Source: Bacteroidota bacterium
Lineage (GTDB): Bacteria; Bacteroidota; Bacteroidia; Chitinophagales; Chitinophagaceae
Length of the DNA: 64,000 nucleotides
Direction of reading: 5' to 3'
NCBI GenBank assembly: GCA_026391455.1
Contig: JAPLEH010000009.1
Span: forward strand, 1 to 64,000
Part shown: positions 35,382 through 44,278 of the stretch, piece by piece
Numbering within the stretch: the first letter of the stretch is position 1
Layout: each line of letters begins with the position of its first letter
The notes under the pieces: model-generated
Databases searched by the model: none
What the model was told of the DNA's origin: nothing
The model's input: only the letters and a program-made list of their open reading frames with translations
Position numbers and translations under genes: made by a program

Positions 35382-36392
35382 ATGAATTATAGTGAGTATA
35401 TAAATAGCACCCTGAAACCAAAGGTTACTGAAAAAGAGATCATTTTGGATCTTTTTGCAGGCTGTGGGGGCTTATCATTGGGATTCGAAGCAGCAGGATT
35501 CAGAACAATAGGCTTTGAAATGGATAAATTCGCTGCAGAAACATACAAGAAAAATCTGAATGGAGAATGCCATGCCATAAAGCTTGATTTAGATTTTAAA
35601 TACCCTGATGCTGAGATTATTATTGGTGGTCCGCCTTGTCAGCCATTTAGTGTAGGAGGTCATCAAAAAGGAATGGAAGATGCACGTGATGGCTTTCCAA
35701 TTTTTATTGATGCCGTGAAAAAATTAAACCCGAAAGTTTTCATGTTTGAAAATGTCAGGGGTTTGCTTTATACAAACAAATGGTATTTTGAACTTGTAAT
35801 TGAAGAGCTAAAAAAACTCGGATACTTCATAGAGTATAAATTACTAAATGCAGTAAACTTCGGTGTTCCACAAAACCGAGAAAGACTTTTCGTTGTAGGG
35901 CATAGATCAAAATTTACATTTCCAAAGCAACAAAGAACAAAAATAACAGTCGGCGATGCCATCGGAGATTTGATGTACACTATTCCGCCAGAAAGCAAAT
36001 TTTTAACACCCTCAATGGATGCATATGTTGCTAAATACGAAAAAGCTTCAGATTGCATAAACCCACGGGATCTTTATCCAGACAGGCCAGCCAGAACACT
36101 CACCTGTCGAAATCTTGCAGGAGCTACCGGAGATATGCAAAGAGTCAGGCTTAAAGATGGAAGAAGAAGACGTCTATTACACAGAGAAGCCGCGCGACTA
36201 CAGACATTCCCAGATTGGTTTGAATTCGTTGGTAACGAAACTCAACAATACAACCAGATTGGAAATGCTGTACCACCTCTTTTAGCATACCAACTTGCCT
36301 GTTCTGTGAAAGAGTGTTATAATCATCCTGAGATTTATTCTTTAGATGAAATTTCTGAAATTGAATCTCATAAGGTTCTAACTCTTTTTTAA
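35382..36392 (+). CDS. DNA (cytosine-5-)-methyltransferase of a type II system
   Basis: 336 residues with the ordered C5-methyltransferase motifs: I DLFAGCGGLSLGFEAAGF, IV GGPPCQPFS with catalytic Cys86, VI MFENVRG, VIII PQNRERLFVVG, a short recognition domain and X QIGNAVPPLL. It methylates cytosine at C5, protecting DNA from the endonuclease encoded eight bases downstream. Base composition is AT-richer than flanking core genes, which suggests horizontal acquisition. Recognition site not readable from sequence. Confidence 0.93.
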   Translation: MNYSEYINSTLKPKVTEKEIILDLFAGCGGLSLGFEAAGFRTIGFEMDKFAAETYKKNLNGECHAIKLDLDFKYPDAEIIIGGPPCQPFSVGGHQKGMEDARDGFPIFIDAVKKLNPKVFMFENVRGLLYTNKWYFELVIEELKKLGYFIEYKLLNAVNFGVPQNRERLFVVGHRSKFTFPKQQRTKITVGDAIGDLMYTIPPESKFLTPSMDAYVAKYEKASDCINPRDLYPDRPARTLTCRNLAGATGDMQRVRLKDGRRRRLLHREAARLQTFPDWFEFVGNETQQYNQIGNAVPPLLAYQLACSVKECYNHPEIYSLDEISEIESHKVLTLF

Positions 36393-36400
36393 GAAGTTGC

Positions 36401-37396
36401 ATGAAAAATTATATACCCAAAAGCACTAAACCTGCTCGTATCCAAAAATTAATAAACGAAGCACTTGATATTCTCGAAAATGTTGGGATTCCATTTGAAA
36501 AAAAGACCCCAAAAGGCCTGCAAAGTATGGCTATGGCCTTTTTAGCGGTAGCGGGAGTAACAAAATCATGGAAAGAAGCCAAAGGATTGAAAGAAAATCG
36601 TCATTTAAAGACCAGAGATATAATCAAATTTATTAATGAAAATTTTGAAGAAAATATATCTCCTGGCTCATATGATGACATGAGGCGAAAACATTTAAAG
36701 TTGCCAGTTTTAGCTGATTTAATTTTAAATAGCGCAGATAATCCAAATGCAGCAACAAATGACCCTACCAGAGGATATACACTCAACAATGATTTTAAAT
36801 CACTATTGCTTTTTTATGGTACAAAAGATTGGCAAATTAAATTAAAGCTATTCAATAAAAACAGACCCTCACTTGAAGAGATTTTACAAAGAAAGAGGAA
36901 CTTAGTAAAAATCCCAATCATTCTTCCCGGAGGCCTCAAACTTGAATTATCACAAGGAGGACACAATCAGTTACAAAGAGAAATAATTGAGGAATTTTTG
37001 CCGCGCTTCGGCAATGGTTGTGAGGTTTTGTATATAGGAGATACCACTAACAAATACCTTATAAGAGACGATAAAAAATTACAAAACCTCGGCTTTTTTG
37101 AGTTGACACATGACTCACTTCCTGACATAGTCGCTTACGACAAAAAGAGAAATTGGCTTTTCTTAATTGAGGCATTTTATAGCTCCGGTGCTATGAGCGA
37201 AGAAAGAATATTCGAGTTAAAAAAGAGCCTGAAAAAGTGTACCGCGGGAATGATATTTATAACCGCATTTACATCAAAAAATGACTTCAAGAAAAACGCA
37301 ACTGAAATTGGCTGGGAAAGTGAAGTTTGGACAGCAGACAATCCCGAACATTTAATTCATTTTAACGGACACAAATTTCTTGGCCCTATGAGTTAA
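36401..37396 (+). CDS. BsuBI/PstI-type restriction endonuclease
   Basis: 331 residues. The C-terminal domain has VLYIGDTTNKYL, LPDIVAYDKKRNWLFLIEAF and SSGAMSEERI, the metal-binding PD...E block and conserved surroundings of the BsuBI/PstI family; the N-terminal 120 residues form the helical domain of that family (MAMAFLAVAGV, KTRDIIKFIN). BsuBI and PstI cut CTGCAG; family members with other specificities may exist, so the site is inference. Translationally close to the methyltransferase (eight bases). Note that the characterised CTGCAG partners are N6-adenine enzymes, while this partner is a C5 enzyme. Confidence 0.82.
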   Translation: MKNYIPKSTKPARIQKLINEALDILENVGIPFEKKTPKGLQSMAMAFLAVAGVTKSWKEAKGLKENRHLKTRDIIKFINENFEENISPGSYDDMRRKHLKLPVLADLILNSADNPNAATNDPTRGYTLNNDFKSLLLFYGTKDWQIKLKLFNKNRPSLEEILQRKRNLVKIPIILPGGLKLELSQGGHNQLQREIIEEFLPRFGNGCEVLYIGDTTNKYLIRDDKKLQNLGFFELTHDSLPDIVAYDKKRNWLFLIEAFYSSGAMSEERIFELKKSLKKCTAGMIFITAFTSKNDFKKNATEIGWESEVWTADNPEHLIHFNGHKFLGPMS

Positions 37397-37596: not shown

Positions 37597-38205
37597 ATGG
37601 ATTCTTTCATTAAACATAAACGGATGGGGGTTTCCTATCAGCCCGACTATACCCGAAAAACAGATGACTTGTATGATGCCTATATTTTTGCGCAGCAACA
37701 TTTGCTGTCCAGAGATAATATACGGAAGGCGCACAGGATGTTAACCAAACATATTTTGCATGAAACCAGCCAGGGCACATTAAGAAAAGGGAATATGTAT
37801 GTTATTACCGAAGATGGTAAAATTGAATATGTGGCCGTATCTCCGGATAAAGTAGCGGCTGAAATGGAAAAGTTCTATGCGGATCTAGACACCTTACTGA
37901 AGACAGATATATCCTTTCAAGAAATATTTTTCTTCGCCTCACTCCTTCACCTTGTATTTGTAAAAATTCATCCCTTTGAAGATGGGAATGGCCGCACGGC
38001 CCGTTTACTGGAAAAATGGTTTCTGGCGCAGAAATTGGGCGCGAATGCATGGTTCATAGAATCGGAAAAATATTATTATTCGCAACACCATCTGTACTAT
38101 ACAAATATCCGCAAACTGGGCCTGGAATATGATTTTTTGGATTACACGAAAGCATTGCCATTTTTACAAATGTTGCCTCAATCGCTTTCAGTAAATAATT
38201 CATAA
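37597..38205 (+). CDS. Fic-family protein (AMP-transferase type)
   Basis: 202 residues. The Fic core motif HPFEDGNGRTAR (catalytic His125) is complete, with a preceding helical segment ISFQEIFFFASLLHLVFVKI. Fic enzymes attach AMP or another nucleotide part to target proteins. No separate Fic-inhibiting antitoxin gene and no clear inhibitory (S/T)xxxE(G/N) motif is seen in this part. The reading frame probably lost its first 29 codons or so through a one-base change near 37580. It follows a restriction-modification pair, a common place for Fic genes. Confidence 0.8.
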   Translation: MDSFIKHKRMGVSYQPDYTRKTDDLYDAYIFAQQHLLSRDNIRKAHRMLTKHILHETSQGTLRKGNMYVITEDGKIEYVAVSPDKVAAEMEKFYADLDTLLKTDISFQEIFFFASLLHLVFVKIHPFEDGNGRTARLLEKWFLAQKLGANAWFIESEKYYYSQHHLYYTNIRKLGLEYDFLDYTKALPFLQMLPQSLSVNNS

Positions 38206-38256: not shown

Positions 38257-39360
38257 CTACTCCCCCAACCGCTTTCTCCAAAACGGAGCATCCGCCCATC
38301 TTTTCTCTTCGCCATACCATTGTTCCAGGTGCCGTTGGTATGCCTGCTTAATGGACTGTATGGAATGGATATAGTCGTTAAAATCGGTACAGGCTCCAGA
38401 CAAATAGCGGTAACTGTTTTCGGCAGCAGCCAGCCCTGTATAGAGTGCATTAAATATTCCCTGCGATGATAAAGGATCAAAACCGAGTGCCGCATCGCCC
38501 GTTGCCAGCCAACCTTCCCCGGCACAGGGCTGCAGGTAAGATGAATTCGCTGCGGTAGTGCCATGTATCAGCTCAAGCGGATTCGTACAAAAATGAGTGA
38601 GTGAAATATGCCTGCTCAACTGTGTTTGCTGTTGCAATCGCTGCCAAAAATCTTGAGGACTACGCAACCAGGTATTATCGTTTTGTTCATTGTCGGTATG
38701 AAAAGAAATGATACGCTTCCCCGCTGTAAGCGGCGCCGTGTACCACCAGCCATTTTCTTCTGATTGTATATAACTCAACCCCTGCGGATTGACAATATCA
38801 TCCTTTCCAATTACCCATCCGCATATTAATGAATCCGTTTGTATTCTGTTTGCCCCCAGCCTTCTGGCCACCGATGACTGTCGCCCCCCGGCATCAATTA
38901 ATAAGCGGGTGTCGATCTCCAATGTTTCATTATTCTTACTTACCGTTATTCGCCAATTCTTAGAAGGAAGTTGTACCGCCTCTTCCAGTTTTACCCCAGA
39001 CCAACATTCTGCACCCCGTTCTTTTGCTTTCTGCTGCATCCATCGTTCAAACTGTTGCCGGTTGATATGCCAGCCATGCCCATCAGGATCACGCAAAAAA
39101 TCGGTTTCTTTCAATTCATCGGAGCCCCATCTTGACTGATTGCCATAATGAGGCAAATGGCCTTGCCGGATAAAATCATCCCAAAGCCCCATATCCTTTA
39201 TCAATTTATTAGCCGCCGGTGGTAACGATTCACCGGCTTTTGGCATCCGTTCGGGCATACGATCTATCACCAACACCCGATAATTTGGTGCCAGGTTAAG
39301 CGCATAACTGCATCCCGCAGGTCCGGCACCCACCACTACTGCATCTGTTGTAATCATCAA
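38257..39360 (-). CDS. LodB-like FAD-dependent maturase of the quinoprotein oxidase
   Basis: 367 residues. N-terminal FAD motif VVVGAGPAGCSYALNL, then GESLPPAANKLI (substrate loop), LLIDAGGRQSSVARRLGA and GWLATGDAALGFDPLSSQGI (the second FAD motif). This places it in the flavin monooxygenase/halogenase-like group, and position decides the rest: it begins six bases after the LodA-like gene. LodB proteins are required for forming the cysteine tryptophylquinone cofactor of LodA. Function by context and family; no signal peptide. Confidence 0.8.
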   Translation of the reverse strand: MMITTDAVVVGAGPAGCSYALNLAPNYRVLVIDRMPERMPKAGESLPPAANKLIKDMGLWDDFIRQGHLPHYGNQSRWGSDELKETDFLRDPDGHGWHINRQQFERWMQQKAKERGAECWSGVKLEEAVQLPSKNWRITVSKNNETLEIDTRLLIDAGGRQSSVARRLGANRIQTDSLICGWVIGKDDIVNPQGLSYIQSEENGWWYTAPLTAGKRIISFHTDNEQNDNTWLRSPQDFWQRLQQQTQLSRHISLTHFCTNPLELIHGTTAANSSYLQPCAGEGWLATGDAALGFDPLSSQGIFNALYTGLAAAENSYRYLSGACTDFNDYIHSIQSIKQAYQRHLEQWYGEEKRWADAPFWRKRLGE

Positions 39361-39366
39361 TCAATG

Positions 39367-42252
39367 TTAAGATTGCCGGAAACGTCGTACTTTATCAATG
39401 AGCCGCAGATCAAATACATCGGGGGCATCTTCCACCGTTTGCATTTTTACCTGCAAGGGTTTCATATTATTGCTCAATGGTTGCTGCTTTTTCATTTCCT
39501 CCACTTCCATTACTGCTGGAAATAATGGATCATCCGGTAAGCCCGGCATTACTTCCACGATACCCAGTTCATCAAAATGTGCAATCATATAATTGATCTG
39601 GAATGTATATCCTTTATCCAGATGTAAAGGTGCTAACCAACTGGCTCGGTTTGCAAATGCCTGCAGCCGCAACCCGGGATCCAGGTCTGTATCCATCACA
39701 ATTTTGTAGGCTTCTGCTGTCATTACCTGATTGGGAACCCGCGCAGGCCAGAAGGTGGGTACATATGGATCGTAGGTGGTATCATAACCCGAACGGCAAC
39801 TGGCTGTATCGGTTTGCCAGGGTACTGCCATCCACCGCGTAATACCTCCGGGTACTTGTCCCCCGGACAAGGGGCTGTTGGGTAATGAAATCACATCGCT
39901 GTTGAGTATGGCTCCATAATTCGGCTCGATCCAATTTTCCGGCGCATGCTGCAGCCGGAATGCGGATTTATACATACTGGCGGTACGCAATGGCCAGGTC
40001 ATTTCACAACCCGGATGAAATGCATCGGCCAGACAAAATTCCATGGCAGCACGCGTGAGCATATCGGGCTGATCCTGCACAGGCACTTCTTCCAATGTGC
40101 GCGGATATTTATAATTCGCATCATAATCTGGAATAAAATCTCCTGCTGCCCACTGATCCAAAAAACGCAATTGTGTATCTGTGAGAAATGCGTGCTGCCG
40201 CGGTGTATGGGCCGCAGGAATATTCATTGCATCTCCATACAACCATGGGAAAGGTGCCGGAGACCAGGAGTCCACATCACCGTGTCTGAAATGATTGGCG
40301 AGTACTTTTCGGGTTTCATTATATGCCGGTGAAGGTGTGCTTAATTTCGCTACCCATTCCGGTGTACTGAAATCAAATACTCCGTTGTGTCCAAAGGCCG
40401 CAGCGAATCCCGCATTCACCCATTGCAAGCGGTGCATCCGCTCAAAGATCGGATAGATATCATGCAGGTAAGATGGTCTTGCAGGTGTTGGCAATAATTT
40501 ATTCTGAATGGCCACATCCCGCATCAGATCCCACATAGTGCGTACCGATTTTTGCAAAGGCGCATAGTTAGGTGGCGCAGTTACCACCCAGGCCGGCTCC
40601 ACTTCCAGTTTTTTACCATTGTATTCAACGGTAGCAGTAACCGGTCCGTCCGATACATCGTCATGCCATCCATCATTATTGGCAAAGGTTACTGCCTTCG
40701 TGCCATCATAGGAGGCGGACTTGCCATGTCCTCCCAATACAATTAAACGACCATCACTGTCAGTACGAACCTCACCGAGGTACACATCCTTTTTCATGAA
40801 CTGACCCGAGAGTGGCTTACTGGTTTTATTTTTTCCGGAGATCTTCACTTTACCTGCATCGATACTTAATTGATTCCGATCCGCAACCTGCGGATTTCTC
40901 AATAAAGAAGGCGGTGCATCTTTTGCTTCGGGAATATCGAGTGCCAACTGAAACTGATACCAGGACGCTTTATGATTGGCCAGATGTACATGCCAGGTTA
41001 TGTCTGCATCGGAAGCGGTGAGTTCCTTTACCGCTTTTCCTTTTGCATTCAATCCATATATCCTGAAGCGTGCTGCCTGCCGTTTAATGGCTCCTTTTGC
41101 ATCCCGGTAAAATCCGGGTTGCTCTGGCAGCGGCTCGGCTACTTCGGGCCCGATAAAAAATTCCTTTTCACTGTTACCCACTCTGCAAATACCAATGGGC
41201 GGATATATGGCTGCGGTAAGAATGGTCTGATCATCGTCTTCCTCCCTTTCCGTTTTTTCTTCTGCTCCTGCGGGTATAGCAGGGTGAACCGGCTCACGGG
41301 TGGAGATACCATTTGCCGTATGTCTCTTCACAGCAGATGCTTCATACACCACTTTTCTTGCTTGTGAAATACTGCCCTGTGGTTCATGTTCGGCAAGACT
41401 ATGCCAGGGATTAAAGGCGAGGTTTTCACCATACTCCGCCTGACCCGGCGCACATATATCCTGTTGGGGTAAATGTAATGTGGCGATATGCACCGGCACA
41501 CTGGCTGTCTCACTCCATTGTACCGTGGCCTTATCGAGCGGCATCGTTTTAGGATTGGTACGAAACTGTACCATAAAGCGGAAGGAGGCCGGGCCTTTGC
41601 GTAAACGGTTTTGGAGGTCCAGTGCCAGATAATTCGGATTATTGAATGGTTCACCGGCAGGCTGATCTATGGGTTCCAATTTATACTTTACATACCGGTC
41701 TTTACCAAATGAGTACGGCAGGCCGCTCCAATAATTGGTGGTCAACGAACTCGCCACTATTTTTTCCATTTCATCCAGAATACGTTTTGTTTCGGGATGT
41801 GCAGCGAGATAGGGATCATAATTCCCATCGATCACGCCGGCCTTGGTAAATTCCGCCATATCCTTTGCGGTATCTACAAAGAACACATCATGGTTCTGCA
41901 TCAGAAAATCCTGCGTCTCTCCATCTCCCAGTAATTTCTTTCCTTTTACACCAAAGAGTTTAATTCCAATTCCACAAGTTGTTTTCAAATCAGGAGTTGT
42001 AGGTGTTGTATCACTGGAAAAACGCACCCAGGCGTCCAGTTTTTTGTATTTGAAAACACCCACCCGCAATTCTTTTGGCAGATCGCTTCGCATTTCGAAG
42101 TATCCATGTGCCACACCATGTGGCTTGAGGAATACAGGTCTGCGGGCTGGTTTCTGACCGAGATTAATTCTGTTTTGTTGTACAATGTCAACAAACATTT
42201 CCTTGAGCTGCTCAGTGGGAGTCTTTTTGTCCCAATTCTTATTTTTACTCAT
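39367..42252 (-). CDS. Fusion of a catalase-like domain and a LodA-like CTQ oxidase
   Basis: 961 residues in two parts. Residues 1-320 are a catalase-like (SrpA-type) domain: RRPVFLKPHGVAHGYFEM, WVRFSSDTTPTTPDLK, GIGIKLFGVKGKKLLG, QDFLMQNHDVFF and ARKVVYEASAVKR (candidate proximal Tyr303). The position of the distal His is Phe41. From about 341 a LodA-like domain follows: IYPPIGICRVGNS, the cofactor Cys749 in HPGCEMTW and Trp807 in GGITRWMAVPWQTDTASCRS. LodA-type enzymes oxidise amino acids and release hydrogen peroxide. Ordinary LodA proteins are about 650-700 residues, so the N-terminal third is extra. Substrate unknown. Confidence 0.85.
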   Translation of the reverse strand: MSKNKNWDKKTPTEQLKEMFVDIVQQNRINLGQKPARRPVFLKPHGVAHGYFEMRSDLPKELRVGVFKYKKLDAWVRFSSDTTPTTPDLKTTCGIGIKLFGVKGKKLLGDGETQDFLMQNHDVFFVDTAKDMAEFTKAGVIDGNYDPYLAAHPETKRILDEMEKIVASSLTTNYWSGLPYSFGKDRYVKYKLEPIDQPAGEPFNNPNYLALDLQNRLRKGPASFRFMVQFRTNPKTMPLDKATVQWSETASVPVHIATLHLPQQDICAPGQAEYGENLAFNPWHSLAEHEPQGSISQARKVVYEASAVKRHTANGISTREPVHPAIPAGAEEKTEREEDDDQTILTAAIYPPIGICRVGNSEKEFFIGPEVAEPLPEQPGFYRDAKGAIKRQAARFRIYGLNAKGKAVKELTASDADITWHVHLANHKASWYQFQLALDIPEAKDAPPSLLRNPQVADRNQLSIDAGKVKISGKNKTSKPLSGQFMKKDVYLGEVRTDSDGRLIVLGGHGKSASYDGTKAVTFANNDGWHDDVSDGPVTATVEYNGKKLEVEPAWVVTAPPNYAPLQKSVRTMWDLMRDVAIQNKLLPTPARPSYLHDIYPIFERMHRLQWVNAGFAAAFGHNGVFDFSTPEWVAKLSTPSPAYNETRKVLANHFRHGDVDSWSPAPFPWLYGDAMNIPAAHTPRQHAFLTDTQLRFLDQWAAGDFIPDYDANYKYPRTLEEVPVQDQPDMLTRAAMEFCLADAFHPGCEMTWPLRTASMYKSAFRLQHAPENWIEPNYGAILNSDVISLPNSPLSGGQVPGGITRWMAVPWQTDTASCRSGYDTTYDPYVPTFWPARVPNQVMTAEAYKIVMDTDLDPGLRLQAFANRASWLAPLHLDKGYTFQINYMIAHFDELGIVEVMPGLPDDPLFPAVMEVEEMKKQQPLSNNMKPLQVKMQTVEDAPDVFDLRLIDKVRRFRQS

Positions 42253-42721: not shown

Positions 42722-44278
42722 TCACTGGGTTCTGCGTTTCAAATTGGAACTGTATTTCTTTTTGATCACATCCTCCACCTGTACCCCGCTGATCTTACTC
42801 TCCAGCCAGGAGATTACATCCAGGTATACAAAGGCGCGGCTTTCGAGGGGATTGCCTTCGTATTTTTTGAGTTTGAGCAATAGTTTTTCAAATTCCGGTT
42901 TTAGCGCATGGGCCCCCACACGGAAGGATCGGCGCAAAAAGGCAAACATCTCATCCTCCACTTTACTCAGATTCTCCATACGGGCCATATAGCGGTATAC
43001 CGATTTGATAAGGTATTCGAGCAGATCGAAATTGCCCAGTTCATAATGCGCGATCAGGTGCAGCAGGCGGGCATAGCATTGCAGGTCGGTACGCAGATCC
43101 CCCTTCTGGTTGATGATGCGGTTGAGGTAATCAATGGCTTTTTCATTATCGCCACTGCCAAAATACAGACAAGCAATCTTATAATAAAATACCAGCACCC
43201 GATGTGTGTCAAGATACAGCCCGTATTCTTTCAGCATGGCTTCCAGGAAGGGAACGAGGCGCAATCCCTTCGTGAATTTGCCCTGCAGAAAATATAAATT
43301 TATCCTGGCCGTATAGAGATACTGATAGGCCAGTATACGGTCGTTTTCATTTTGCTGCAAAAATTTCTGCCGGGTAAACTGTTCAAACTGACGAATACGC
43401 ACCGCCAGTTTTTCTGCATTGAGCAAAATAAAATCAGCCCCCATCAGGTTGTGCATGCCTTTGATATAAGCAGCCGTTTCCACTTTTACCAGATCCGGGA
43501 ATTCTTCGAAGAGGCTTACCCATTTTTGCGAATAGCGGTAATAAGGCAAAAAATCCTGGCGGATAAATGCATACCATACCTGGCATTGAAAAAAATACAG
43601 CCGTTCATAAAAACCGGATTCGCGCTTATCCATCGCCGGTAGTTGCTTTTCAAAATAAGCCCGGAGGCTTTTTACATCTTTCTCATTGCGCGCATGGCCA
43701 TGCTGTATATACCAACTGTAGAGTTGAAGGGAAAGATTGGATAATTTGCTCACCAGAGAAAGCCGTTCATTGATCTGGTCCGACTCAGCCGACAACTGAT
43801 CGGCGCGGTCCTGCATACTGCGGGTGATAAAAAGTGTCTCAATTTTCTTTTCAAAAAAAAGCGCCTGTTGAATATAGGTGAGTTGCTGATGGGTCCGTGC
43901 CGTTTCCTTCAGCCGGTCGAGCACTTTGAGACTTTGCAGGTAAAGCCCTTTATTGTACAAAATACGCGCATGGTCCATTTGTTCATGCAGGTGAATATCA
44001 ATATTGTCTTCGTCTTTGATGAGCCGCAGGCTGGACAGGATCTGCTTATACAAGTGGGCCTTGATATTCGACAATTGCTGCTTCTTGATACCCCGGGCCC
44101 GGGTGAGCAACAATTTCTCATCGTATTCATTCATCCGGTCGAGTGCATCAAAGAGTTGAATGATCTTCAGGTCACCGCTGTCTGAGTTACGCTTCACATA
44201 GAGCTTAAAATTGCGTTTCTCGCTCTTTTCGAGCGATTTAACAAGCTGAAACAAGGCATCGGCGGGACGGTTGGACAT
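42722..44278 (-). CDS. Large helical hypothetical protein, TPR-like
   Basis: 518 residues, almost entirely helical with repeating Tyr/Leu/Ala patterns such as ACLYFGSGDNEKAIDYLNRI, typical of TPR-like solenoids. No signal peptide or membrane helix, so cytosolic. Conserved-looking N-terminus SNRPADALFQLVKSLEKSEK with a KRNFKLYVKRN segment. The family is known to me only as a conserved protein of Chitinophaga relatives; no function is established. Divergent from leuA with 250 bases between. Confidence 0.65.
   Translation of the reverse strand: MSNRPADALFQLVKSLEKSEKRNFKLYVKRNSDSGDLKIIQLFDALDRMNEYDEKLLLTRARGIKKQQLSNIKAHLYKQILSSLRLIKDEDNIDIHLHEQMDHARILYNKGLYLQSLKVLDRLKETARTHQQLTYIQQALFFEKKIETLFITRSMQDRADQLSAESDQINERLSLVSKLSNLSLQLYSWYIQHGHARNEKDVKSLRAYFEKQLPAMDKRESGFYERLYFFQCQVWYAFIRQDFLPYYRYSQKWVSLFEEFPDLVKVETAAYIKGMHNLMGADFILLNAEKLAVRIRQFEQFTRQKFLQQNENDRILAYQYLYTARINLYFLQGKFTKGLRLVPFLEAMLKEYGLYLDTHRVLVFYYKIACLYFGSGDNEKAIDYLNRIINQKGDLRTDLQCYARLLHLIAHYELGNFDLLEYLIKSVYRYMARMENLSKVEDEMFAFLRRSFRVGAHALKPEFEKLLLKLKKYEGNPLESRAFVYLDVISWLESKISGVQVEDVIKKKYSSNLKRRTQ

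What the first reader, a model, noticed from the sequence alone, without database searches (positions are those of the whole stretch)
39367..42252. LodA-like quinoprotein oxidase fused to a catalase-like domain
The sequence shows a SrpA-type catalase-like domain (1-320) joined to a complete LodA-like domain (341-961) with the Cys749/Trp807 pair of a cysteine tryptophylquinone cofactor, and a LodB-like gene six bases downstream. LodA-type enzymes release hydrogen peroxide. A peroxide-handling domain on the same chain could detoxify the product or use it in a second oxidation. The distal His position of the catalase-like domain is Phe41, while Tyr303 is kept, so plain catalase activity is doubtful and a new peroxygenase-like or structural role is possible.
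Basis: partly seen in the sequence, partly recalled or inferred. Interest (0 to 1): 0.78.

Follow-up and report, generated by a model that had tools for sequence, protein, structure and literature searches.

The report
Amine oxidase fused to altered catalase
This gene joins a probable peroxide-producing amine oxidase to a catalase-shaped, probably heme-binding domain; the fusion type was reported in 2015, but its catalase part lacks the one histidine that destroying peroxide needs, so it probably does some other job that remains untested.

Summary
The fusion is real: one intact 961-codon gene on the minus strand (39367-42252), followed by a LodB/GoxB-like maturase gene. Residues 1-321 are predicted to have a catalase fold (nearest solved structure 3e4y); residues 345-922 match GoxA/LodA. 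An assembly error is excluded by 82 other distinct fusions in at least six phyla.

The architecture is not new. Campillo-Brocal et al. 2015 (PMC4417212) list 21 LodA-like proteins with this N-terminal domain, all uncharacterised.

The distal His is Phe in 82 of 83 distinct fusions (the 83rd has a gap there), while the other haem-site residues are invariant, except the distal Asn (81 of 83). Of 31 thinned relatives with His, none lies on a LodA chain. The Phe type forms one clade, so the His/Phe change probably happened once, in the lineage tied to LodA. One genome carries the Phe-type domain as a separate gene beside LodA- and LodB-like genes.

Best reading: a CTQ amine oxidase with a non-catalase haem domain whose remodelled pocket serves other chemistry or regulation. 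Function is untested.

The parts
39367..42252 (-). Fused gene, 961 aa: N-terminal catalase-fold domain plus LodA-like CTQ oxidase
   Evidence: Intact ORF; 82 other distinct fusions of the same layout
41290..42252 (-). Catalase-fold domain, residues 1-321
41221..41289 (-). Linker, residues 322-344 (low confidence around 330-339)
   Evidence: pLDDT under 50 at 330-339
39487..41220 (-). LodA/GoxA-like domain, residues 345-922
42130..42132 (-). Codon of Phe41, in place of the catalase distal His
   Evidence: Codon TTC; aligned with His of human catalase and of 3e4w; Phe in 82 of 83 distinct fusions, the other a gap
41893..41898 (-). Codons of Gln119 and distal Asn120
   Evidence: Asn in 81 of 83, Ala in 2; Gln119 in 60 of 60 Phe-type rows and 0 of 31 His-type rows
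41344..41346 (-). Codon of Tyr303, predicted proximal haem ligand (R299-x-x-x-Y303)
   Evidence: 83 of 83
39796..39798 (-). Codon of Cys819, predicted CTQ cysteine (LodA Cys516)
   Evidence: 83 of 83
39748..39750 (-). Codon of Trp835, predicted CTQ tryptophan (GoxA Trp697, LodA Trp581 by motif)
   Evidence: 83 of 83
39808..39810 (-). Codon of Asp815 (GoxA Asp678)
   Evidence: 83 of 83
38257..39360 (-). LodB/GoxB-like flavoprotein maturase gene, 367 aa from TTG (in-frame ATG at 39355-39357)
   Evidence: NCBIfam GoxB E 2e-67 and LodB E 5.4e-66, both under their equivalog cut-offs; a LodB-like ORF follows the fusion in 77 of 81 loci, the other 4 end at or near the contig edge

Best explanation
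What it is: an operon for a bifunctional-looking protein and its maturase. Residues 345-922 are a LodA-like oxidase of the catalase-fused kind. The LodB-like flavoprotein helps to cross-link Cys819 to Trp835 to make the quinone cofactor CTQ (inferred by homology). The quinone then oxidises a primary amine, not known and probably not glycine, to an aldehyde or keto acid and releases ammonia and H2O2 (inferred by homology). Residues 1-321 are a catalase-fold domain that very probably still binds haem b through Tyr303. Of the known haem-site residues it lacks only the general acid-base His, so it should not run the catalase cycle (inferred). Its distal pocket differs from that of its relatives (Phe41, with neighbouring Asp81 and Gln119 also fixed), probably since one event, and has been held constant since. 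The most likely role is therefore a haem step other than H2O2 dismutation, working with the oxidase: a reaction on an organic product or peroxide in a hydrophobic pocket, as the catalase-related allene oxide synthase does for its fused lipoxygenase. Shown here: sequence, fold prediction, residue conservation, one Phe clade, operon link. Not shown: haem, CTQ, substrate, any activity.
For: LodA domains and LodB-like gene. Fold of both halves. Haem-site residues kept: R77, S79, R299, Y303 and R310 in 83 of 83, R38 in 82 of 83 (one gap), N120 in 81 of 83; these match the cAOS list R64, R102, R360, N137, Y353 (PMC5617202), with Phe at the H67 site in 82 of 83 and one gap. Quick tree with the distal column masked: the Phe type is one side of a branch, support 100; of its 31 rows 29 are LodA fusions, one (L035) is followed by broken LodA pieces and one (L124) stands in the same operon as a LodA-like gene. 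Over 95 thinned N-domains, 58 of 60 Phe rows and 0 of 31 His rows lie on a LodA chain. Domain about as conserved as the oxidase: mean column conservation 0.70 against 0.72. Phe-type-specific positions include neighbours of the pocket residues in sequence (V40, F41, S80, D81, Q119). A split version exists: LodA-like, LodB-like and Phe-type catalase-like genes in a row (L160). Precedent for partnership with an oxygenating enzyme: cAOS-lipoxygenase, which does not remove H2O2.
Against: No haem, activity or substrate has been measured here, and I found no report of one. Haem binding is inferred from residues alone. Close LodA relatives without the domain (L033, L034, 59% and 56% identical in the oxidase part) show that the oxidase can exist without it. 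Conservation is equally expected of an interface. AlphaFold gives no trustworthy relative placement of the domains (pTM 0.66 whole, 0.92 for the N-domain alone), so channelling is not shown. In two fusions the distal Asn is Ala.
Confidence: 0.55

Rival explanations
1. Structural role: the domain is a scaffold for folding, oligomerisation or partner docking (for example LodB), with or without a vestigial haem.
For: Absence of the key catalytic His; relatives of the oxidase that lack the whole domain; catalases are tetramers (PMC9687031).
Against: The other haem-site residues are invariant or nearly so in 83 distinct fusions; the proximal RxxxY and three Arg are hard to explain without haem. Type-specific changes sit next to the haem-site residues.
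Confidence: 0.2
2. Detoxification: the domain removes the H2O2 released by the oxidase, using another residue (such as the conserved His45) as acid-base catalyst.
For: His45 is present in 82 of 83 distinct fusions, the other a gap; the genome has no PF00199 match of its own.
Against: His45 is also present in many His-type relatives, which keep the catalytic His as well, so it is not a new replacement. An HPII variant lacking this His (H128N) is described as inactive (PMC9687031, passage). cAOS, with the His, does not remove H2O2 (PMC5617202, passage).
Confidence: 0.1
3. Redox partner or maturation aid: the haem exchanges electrons with CTQ (as in quinohaemoprotein amine dehydrogenase) or helps make CTQ (as MauG does for TTQ).
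For: CTQ and haem would share one chain; haem-assisted maturation of tryptophylquinones is known (MauG, in PMC7876137, passage).
Against: A LodB-like ORF follows in 77 of 81 loci, the other 4 being cut, and a LodA relative without the haem domain has a flavoprotein gene in the same place (L034). A Tyr-ligated haem should have a low potential (recalled).
Confidence: 0.1
4. Assembly or annotation artefact joining two adjacent genes.
For: None found.
Against: 82 other distinct fusions from many assemblies, among them complete plasmid records of Azospirillum and Rhizobium.
Confidence: 0.01

Closest known systems
LodA-like proteins of group III fused to a pfam00199/cd08152 domain (Campillo-Brocal et al. 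2015, PMC4417212; abstract, sections 7 and 11 with Table 3, and passages seen)
   Same: Same two domains in the same order, lodB-like gene nearby; Table 3 strains Tenacibaculum ovolyticum DSM 18103 (L058) and Streptomyces afghaniensis 772 (L109) are in my set at 56% and 51% identity
   Different: That paper says of the domain that its families bind haem and need not be catalases; in the parts seen there is no mention of the distal His/Phe difference, of a single Phe clade, or of the split operon
GoxA, CTQ glycine oxidase (PDB 6byw and mutants)
   Different: No catalase-like domain; the stretch that I count as holding GoxA Tyr766/His767 has no counterpart, so glycine is not the expected substrate; 432 bits against the NCBIfam cut-off of 750
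LodA, lysine epsilon-oxidase (PDB 2ymw, 3weu)
   Different: No catalase-like domain; 184 bits against a cut-off of 600
[quoted passage not shown]
   Different: cAOS keeps His67 and Thr66 (here Phe41 and Val40) and is fused to lipoxygenase
33 kDa catalase-related protein of Mycobacterium avium subsp. paratuberculosis (3e4w, 3e4y)
   Different: Stand-alone; keeps the HAK motif

Membership tests
LodA/GoxA family of CTQ oxidases | LodA_N and LodA_C domains | tested here: met
   295 and 139 bits, cut-offs 26.3 and 25
LodA/GoxA family of CTQ oxidases | Cys and Trp aligned with the LodA/GoxA cofactor residues | tested here: met
   Cys819 by alignment; Trp835 by alignment to GoxA and by motif to LodA; both 83 of 83
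LodA/GoxA family of CTQ oxidases | Adjacent lodB-like gene | tested here: met
   38257-39360; 77 of 81 fused loci
LodA/GoxA family of CTQ oxidases | CTQ actually formed; amine oxidised with H2O2 release | not testable with these tools
   Needs the protein
Glycine oxidase GoxA (equivalog) | NCBIfam NF038173 cut-off; Tyr766/His767 | tested here: not met
   432 of 750 bits; that stretch is unmatched in the profile alignment
Lysine epsilon-oxidase LodA (equivalog) | NCBIfam NF038172 cut-off | tested here: not met
   184 of 600 bits
Catalase-fused LodA-like proteins (2015) | N-terminal catalase-like domain on a LodA-like protein, lodB-like gene nearby | tested here: met
   same architecture as PMC4417212 Table 3
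Catalase-fused LodA-like proteins (2015) | Group III in that paper's tree | tested here: inconclusive
   Their tree was not rebuilt; in a quick tree the window falls in one supported clade (99) with L109, the protein of a Table 3 strain
Monofunctional haem catalase (PF00199) | Catalase fold | tested here: met
Monofunctional haem catalase (PF00199) | Proximal Tyr in RxxxY, three propionate Arg, distal Asn and Ser | tested here: met
   R38, R77, R310, R299, Y303, N120, S79
Monofunctional haem catalase (PF00199) | Distal His | tested here: not met
   Phe41
Monofunctional haem catalase (PF00199) | Pfam gathering score | tested here: not met
   13.8 of 25 bits
Catalase-related allene oxide synthase | Distal His67 and Thr66, lipoxygenase partner | tested here: not met
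   Phe41, Val40, LodA partner
Any haem protein | Haem bound | not testable with these tools
   Inferred from residues only

The most novel reading that the evidence does not exclude
The Phe-type domain is a separate class of catalase-fold haem enzyme, born once by replacing the catalytic His with Phe in the lineage that joined LodA. With Phe41, Asn120, Gln119 and Asp81 around a Tyr-ligated haem, it carries out a new haem reaction on the amine oxidase's own product, making a two-step, two-cofactor (CTQ and haem) biosynthetic enzyme found in at least six phyla.
Probability: 0.3. Interest if true: 0.75.

Novelty: new member of a known kind. Interest (0 to 1): 0.42.

Why it matters
The architecture is already in print; its function is not, as far as I found. 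A peroxide-producing enzyme tied to a catalase fold invites the label 'self-detoxifying'. The general absence of the one residue that catalase chemistry needs argues against that label and points to a haem reaction nobody seems to have assayed. Group III LodA-like enzymes had no characterised member in 2015. Because the Phe type is one clade and His-type relatives survive, a single residue swap (Phe41 to His, and the reverse in a stand-alone relative) can test what the change did.

Tried and rejected
Assembly error: rejected (82 other distinct fusions). Cys749/Trp807 as CTQ: rejected for Cys749 and judged wrong for Trp807 by alignment, not by conservation, since Trp807 is also 83 of 83. Detoxifying catalase: disfavoured, not excluded. 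Pseudo-domain in decay: disfavoured, as it is about as conserved as the oxidase domain.

Led nowhere: a single-sequence scan of genome contigs found no relatives; the profile scan then did. Searches of the paper library for catalase with LodA or tryptophylquinone gave only the 2015 survey as relevant; y4iL gave that survey and an unrelated genome paper; the 3e4w protein's own paper was not found; EasC, another catalase-family protein, came up as PDB 9jdb, and one search listed no paper devoted to it; no paper with the GoxA or LodA cofactor residue numbers in three-letter form was found, nor in PMC3948610. That I know of no print source for the His/Phe difference rests, in an open-access library, and on the parts of PMC4417212 seen. 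Domain-domain geometry could not be judged: no coordinates were laid in the script box and the pTM of the whole is 0.66.

Rows dropped: L091 was left out and 52 of the other 88 rows were kept at 85% identity; one of the 52 (L032) was left out of A2. In one search rows under 250 aa were dropped (138 of 140 kept) and 95 were kept at 90% identity. In one search L091 and the cut L105 relative were dropped and 63 rows kept. In one search, 42 of the candidate rows (110 plus the window) were kept; L107 is labelled unfused there but is cut by the contig start and is really fused, so the 8 changes include this mislabel. In one search the script's own count was 46 of 81; for 31 more the LodB-like ORF overlaps the end of the fused gene in stop-to-stop frames, which I read from its list by eye; in L087 that ORF lies in two frames. 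The His-type loci from the genome search hold only about 1.5 kb on each side, so a LodA gene further off was not tested for them. My fusion set leans to close matches: one search kept the best 80 of 559, themselves from a capped list.

Full report
The observation. The gene is one open frame of 961 codons on the minus strand, 39367-42252; the finding did not give a strand, and the plus strand is closed. A LodB/GoxB-like flavoprotein gene follows at 38257-39360, with a TTG start at 39358-39360 and an in-frame ATG at 39355-39357. Pfam finds LodA_N at residues 350-557 and LodA_C at 681-835. The first 338 residues give only a sub-threshold catalase match (E 0.03) but match the sequence of the solved catalase-related protein 3e4w (E 1e-5; E 5.3e-14 with a profile of relatives).

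Cofactor residues. LodA Cys516 (PMC4417212) aligns with a Cys of the relative L010 that falls in one column with Cys819. Trp835 aligns with GoxA Trp697 and stands in the same kind of motif as LodA Trp581. I counted these numbers from printed rows, and the role of GoxA Trp697 is recalled. Asp815 stands at GoxA Asp678, a residue discussed in PMC7876137. Cys819, Trp835 and Asp815 are 83 of 83 in distinct fusions; Trp807 is 83 of 83 as well, so conservation alone does not choose the Trp. GoxA Phe316 and His583 have equivalents (Phe523, 81 of 83, Tyr in 2; His746, 83 of 83), but the stretch with Tyr766/His767 has none. The roles of these four residues are recalled.

How widespread. In 395 genomes of the same phylum, 18 matched and 8 (the window's and seven others, L002-L008) carry the full fusion. 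In 398 genomes of the phylum of an Acinetobacter, 48 matched the N-domain; among the loci I held from that search, two are fusions with LodA (L118, which is the centre genome, and L123) and one is a split version (L124). A profile scan of genome contigs found 559 relatives and kept the best 80; 79 of these 80 span both domains by the cut I used. One of the 79 (L091) has a frame break near residue 70, and the eightieth (L107) is cut by the contig start. Adding two plasmid copies and the seven above, and removing duplicates, leaves 83 distinct fusions including the window's: Bacteroidota 36, Pseudomonadota 26, Actinomycetota 10, Acidobacteriota 3, Myxococcota 3, Cyanobacteriota 1, and 4 to which the script could give no name, the window among them. 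A LodB-like ORF follows in 77 of 81 of the loci checked; the other four end at or near the contig edge. In the window's own genus 0 of 34 other genomes match, some of them incomplete. The nearest relative, 71% identical, is a Methylococcaceae MAG (L037), so the copy here was probably gained by horizontal transfer (inference).

The distal pocket. Profile alignment sets Phe41 against the distal His of human catalase and of 3e4w. It is Phe in 82 of 83 distinct fusions, the other being a gap (L091), and in 25 of 25 after thinning to 70% identity. The rest of the haem site as listed for cAOS and catalase (PMC5617202; PMC9687031) is kept: Arg77, Ser79, Arg299, Tyr303 and Arg310 in 83, Arg38 in 82 with one gap, Asn120 in 81 of 83. 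Among 95 N-domain sequences thinned to 90% identity, 60 have Phe, 31 His, 3 Asn and 1 a gap. Of these, 58 of 60 Phe rows, 0 of 31 His rows and 0 of 3 Asn rows lie on a chain with a LodA match; two of the His rows are separate genes near a fusion (in L105 and L115). With the distal column masked, 31 Phe rows form one side of a branch with support 100, and the Asn rows another; two changes explain all 63 rows (a quick tree without bootstrap, with some long branches). Twenty positions separate the Phe type from the His type by my cut, among them Val40, Phe41, Ser80, Asp81 and Gln119 beside known haem-site residues. The domain is about as conserved as the oxidase (0.70 against 0.72).

Association beyond fusion. 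In G732 (L160) three genes stand in a row: a 796-aa LodA-like protein, a LodB-like protein, and a 635-aa Phe-type catalase-like protein with an unrelated tail. Broken LodA pieces follow a Phe-type gene in Sinorhizobium (L035). Close LodA relatives with no catalase-like match in the stretch held also exist (L033, L034, L036), and they fall among the fused ones in a quick tree that needs up to 8 changes between fused and unfused. With the single Phe clade this fits one gain and several losses or splits, but repeated exchange of the domain is not excluded, and that tree is weak in places.

Mechanism. By homology the oxidase oxidises a primary amine and releases H2O2. The catalase-fold domain keeps what is expected for a Tyr-ligated haem but lacks the acid-base His; an HPII variant without it is called inactive (PMC9687031, passage). 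Detoxification is therefore unlikely. A haem step of another kind is my first choice, by analogy with cAOS, which has the catalase fold, is fused to the enzyme that feeds it, and does not remove H2O2 (PMC5617202, passage). A structural role is second. The sequence evidence cannot decide.

Known or new. The fusion is known: PMC4417212 lists 21 proteins with this layout and places them all in its group III, of which no member had been characterised (abstract, sections 7 and 11 and passages seen). I found no mention of the Phe difference in the parts seen or in five searches. The window's protein is a new member of a known kind; the constant Phe is a testable detail about that kind that I have not found in print.

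Noticed in passing
L162:8754-11390 (+): A DyP-type peroxidase-like part (TIGR01413, 100.0 bits against a cut-off of 100.5) followed on the same chain by a catalase-like domain with Asn in place of the distal His; L129 and L136 share the Asn type, their partners were not tested.
   Followed up: partly
L115:1296-4223 (+): His-type catalase-like domain fused to an animal haem peroxidase (PF03098, E 2.7e-97), about 1.7 kb upstream of the LodA fusion in a Streptosporangium; a related long frame of untested content in L122.
   Followed up: partly
L104:10378-11562 and L105:10202-11173 (+): A separate His-type catalase-like gene, with a lipoprotein-like start by eye, lies about 1.2 to 1.4 kb after the LodA fusion in two Acinetobacter; in L104 the LodB-like ORF stands between.
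   Followed up: partly
L160:9752-10543 (+): Gene for an NPP1-family (necrosis-inducing) protein next to the split LodA-, LodB- and catalase-like genes.
   Followed up: no
window 35382-37396 (+): C-5 cytosine methylase and BsuBI/PstI-type restriction enzyme side by side, G+C 0.38 and 0.35 against 0.44 for the window.
   Followed up: no
window 37597-38205 (+): Fic/DOC-family gene convergent with the LodB-like gene.
   Followed up: no
window 42722-44278 (-): TPR-like protein with a sub-threshold match to the BT2802 family.
   Followed up: no
own genome (G000): No PF00199 catalase match at E 0.001 in a genome rated 100% complete.
   Followed up: no
L035 and L159 (Sinorhizobium plasmids): Relatives of the fusion in which the LodA part lies in several frames, so apparently broken.
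   Followed up: no
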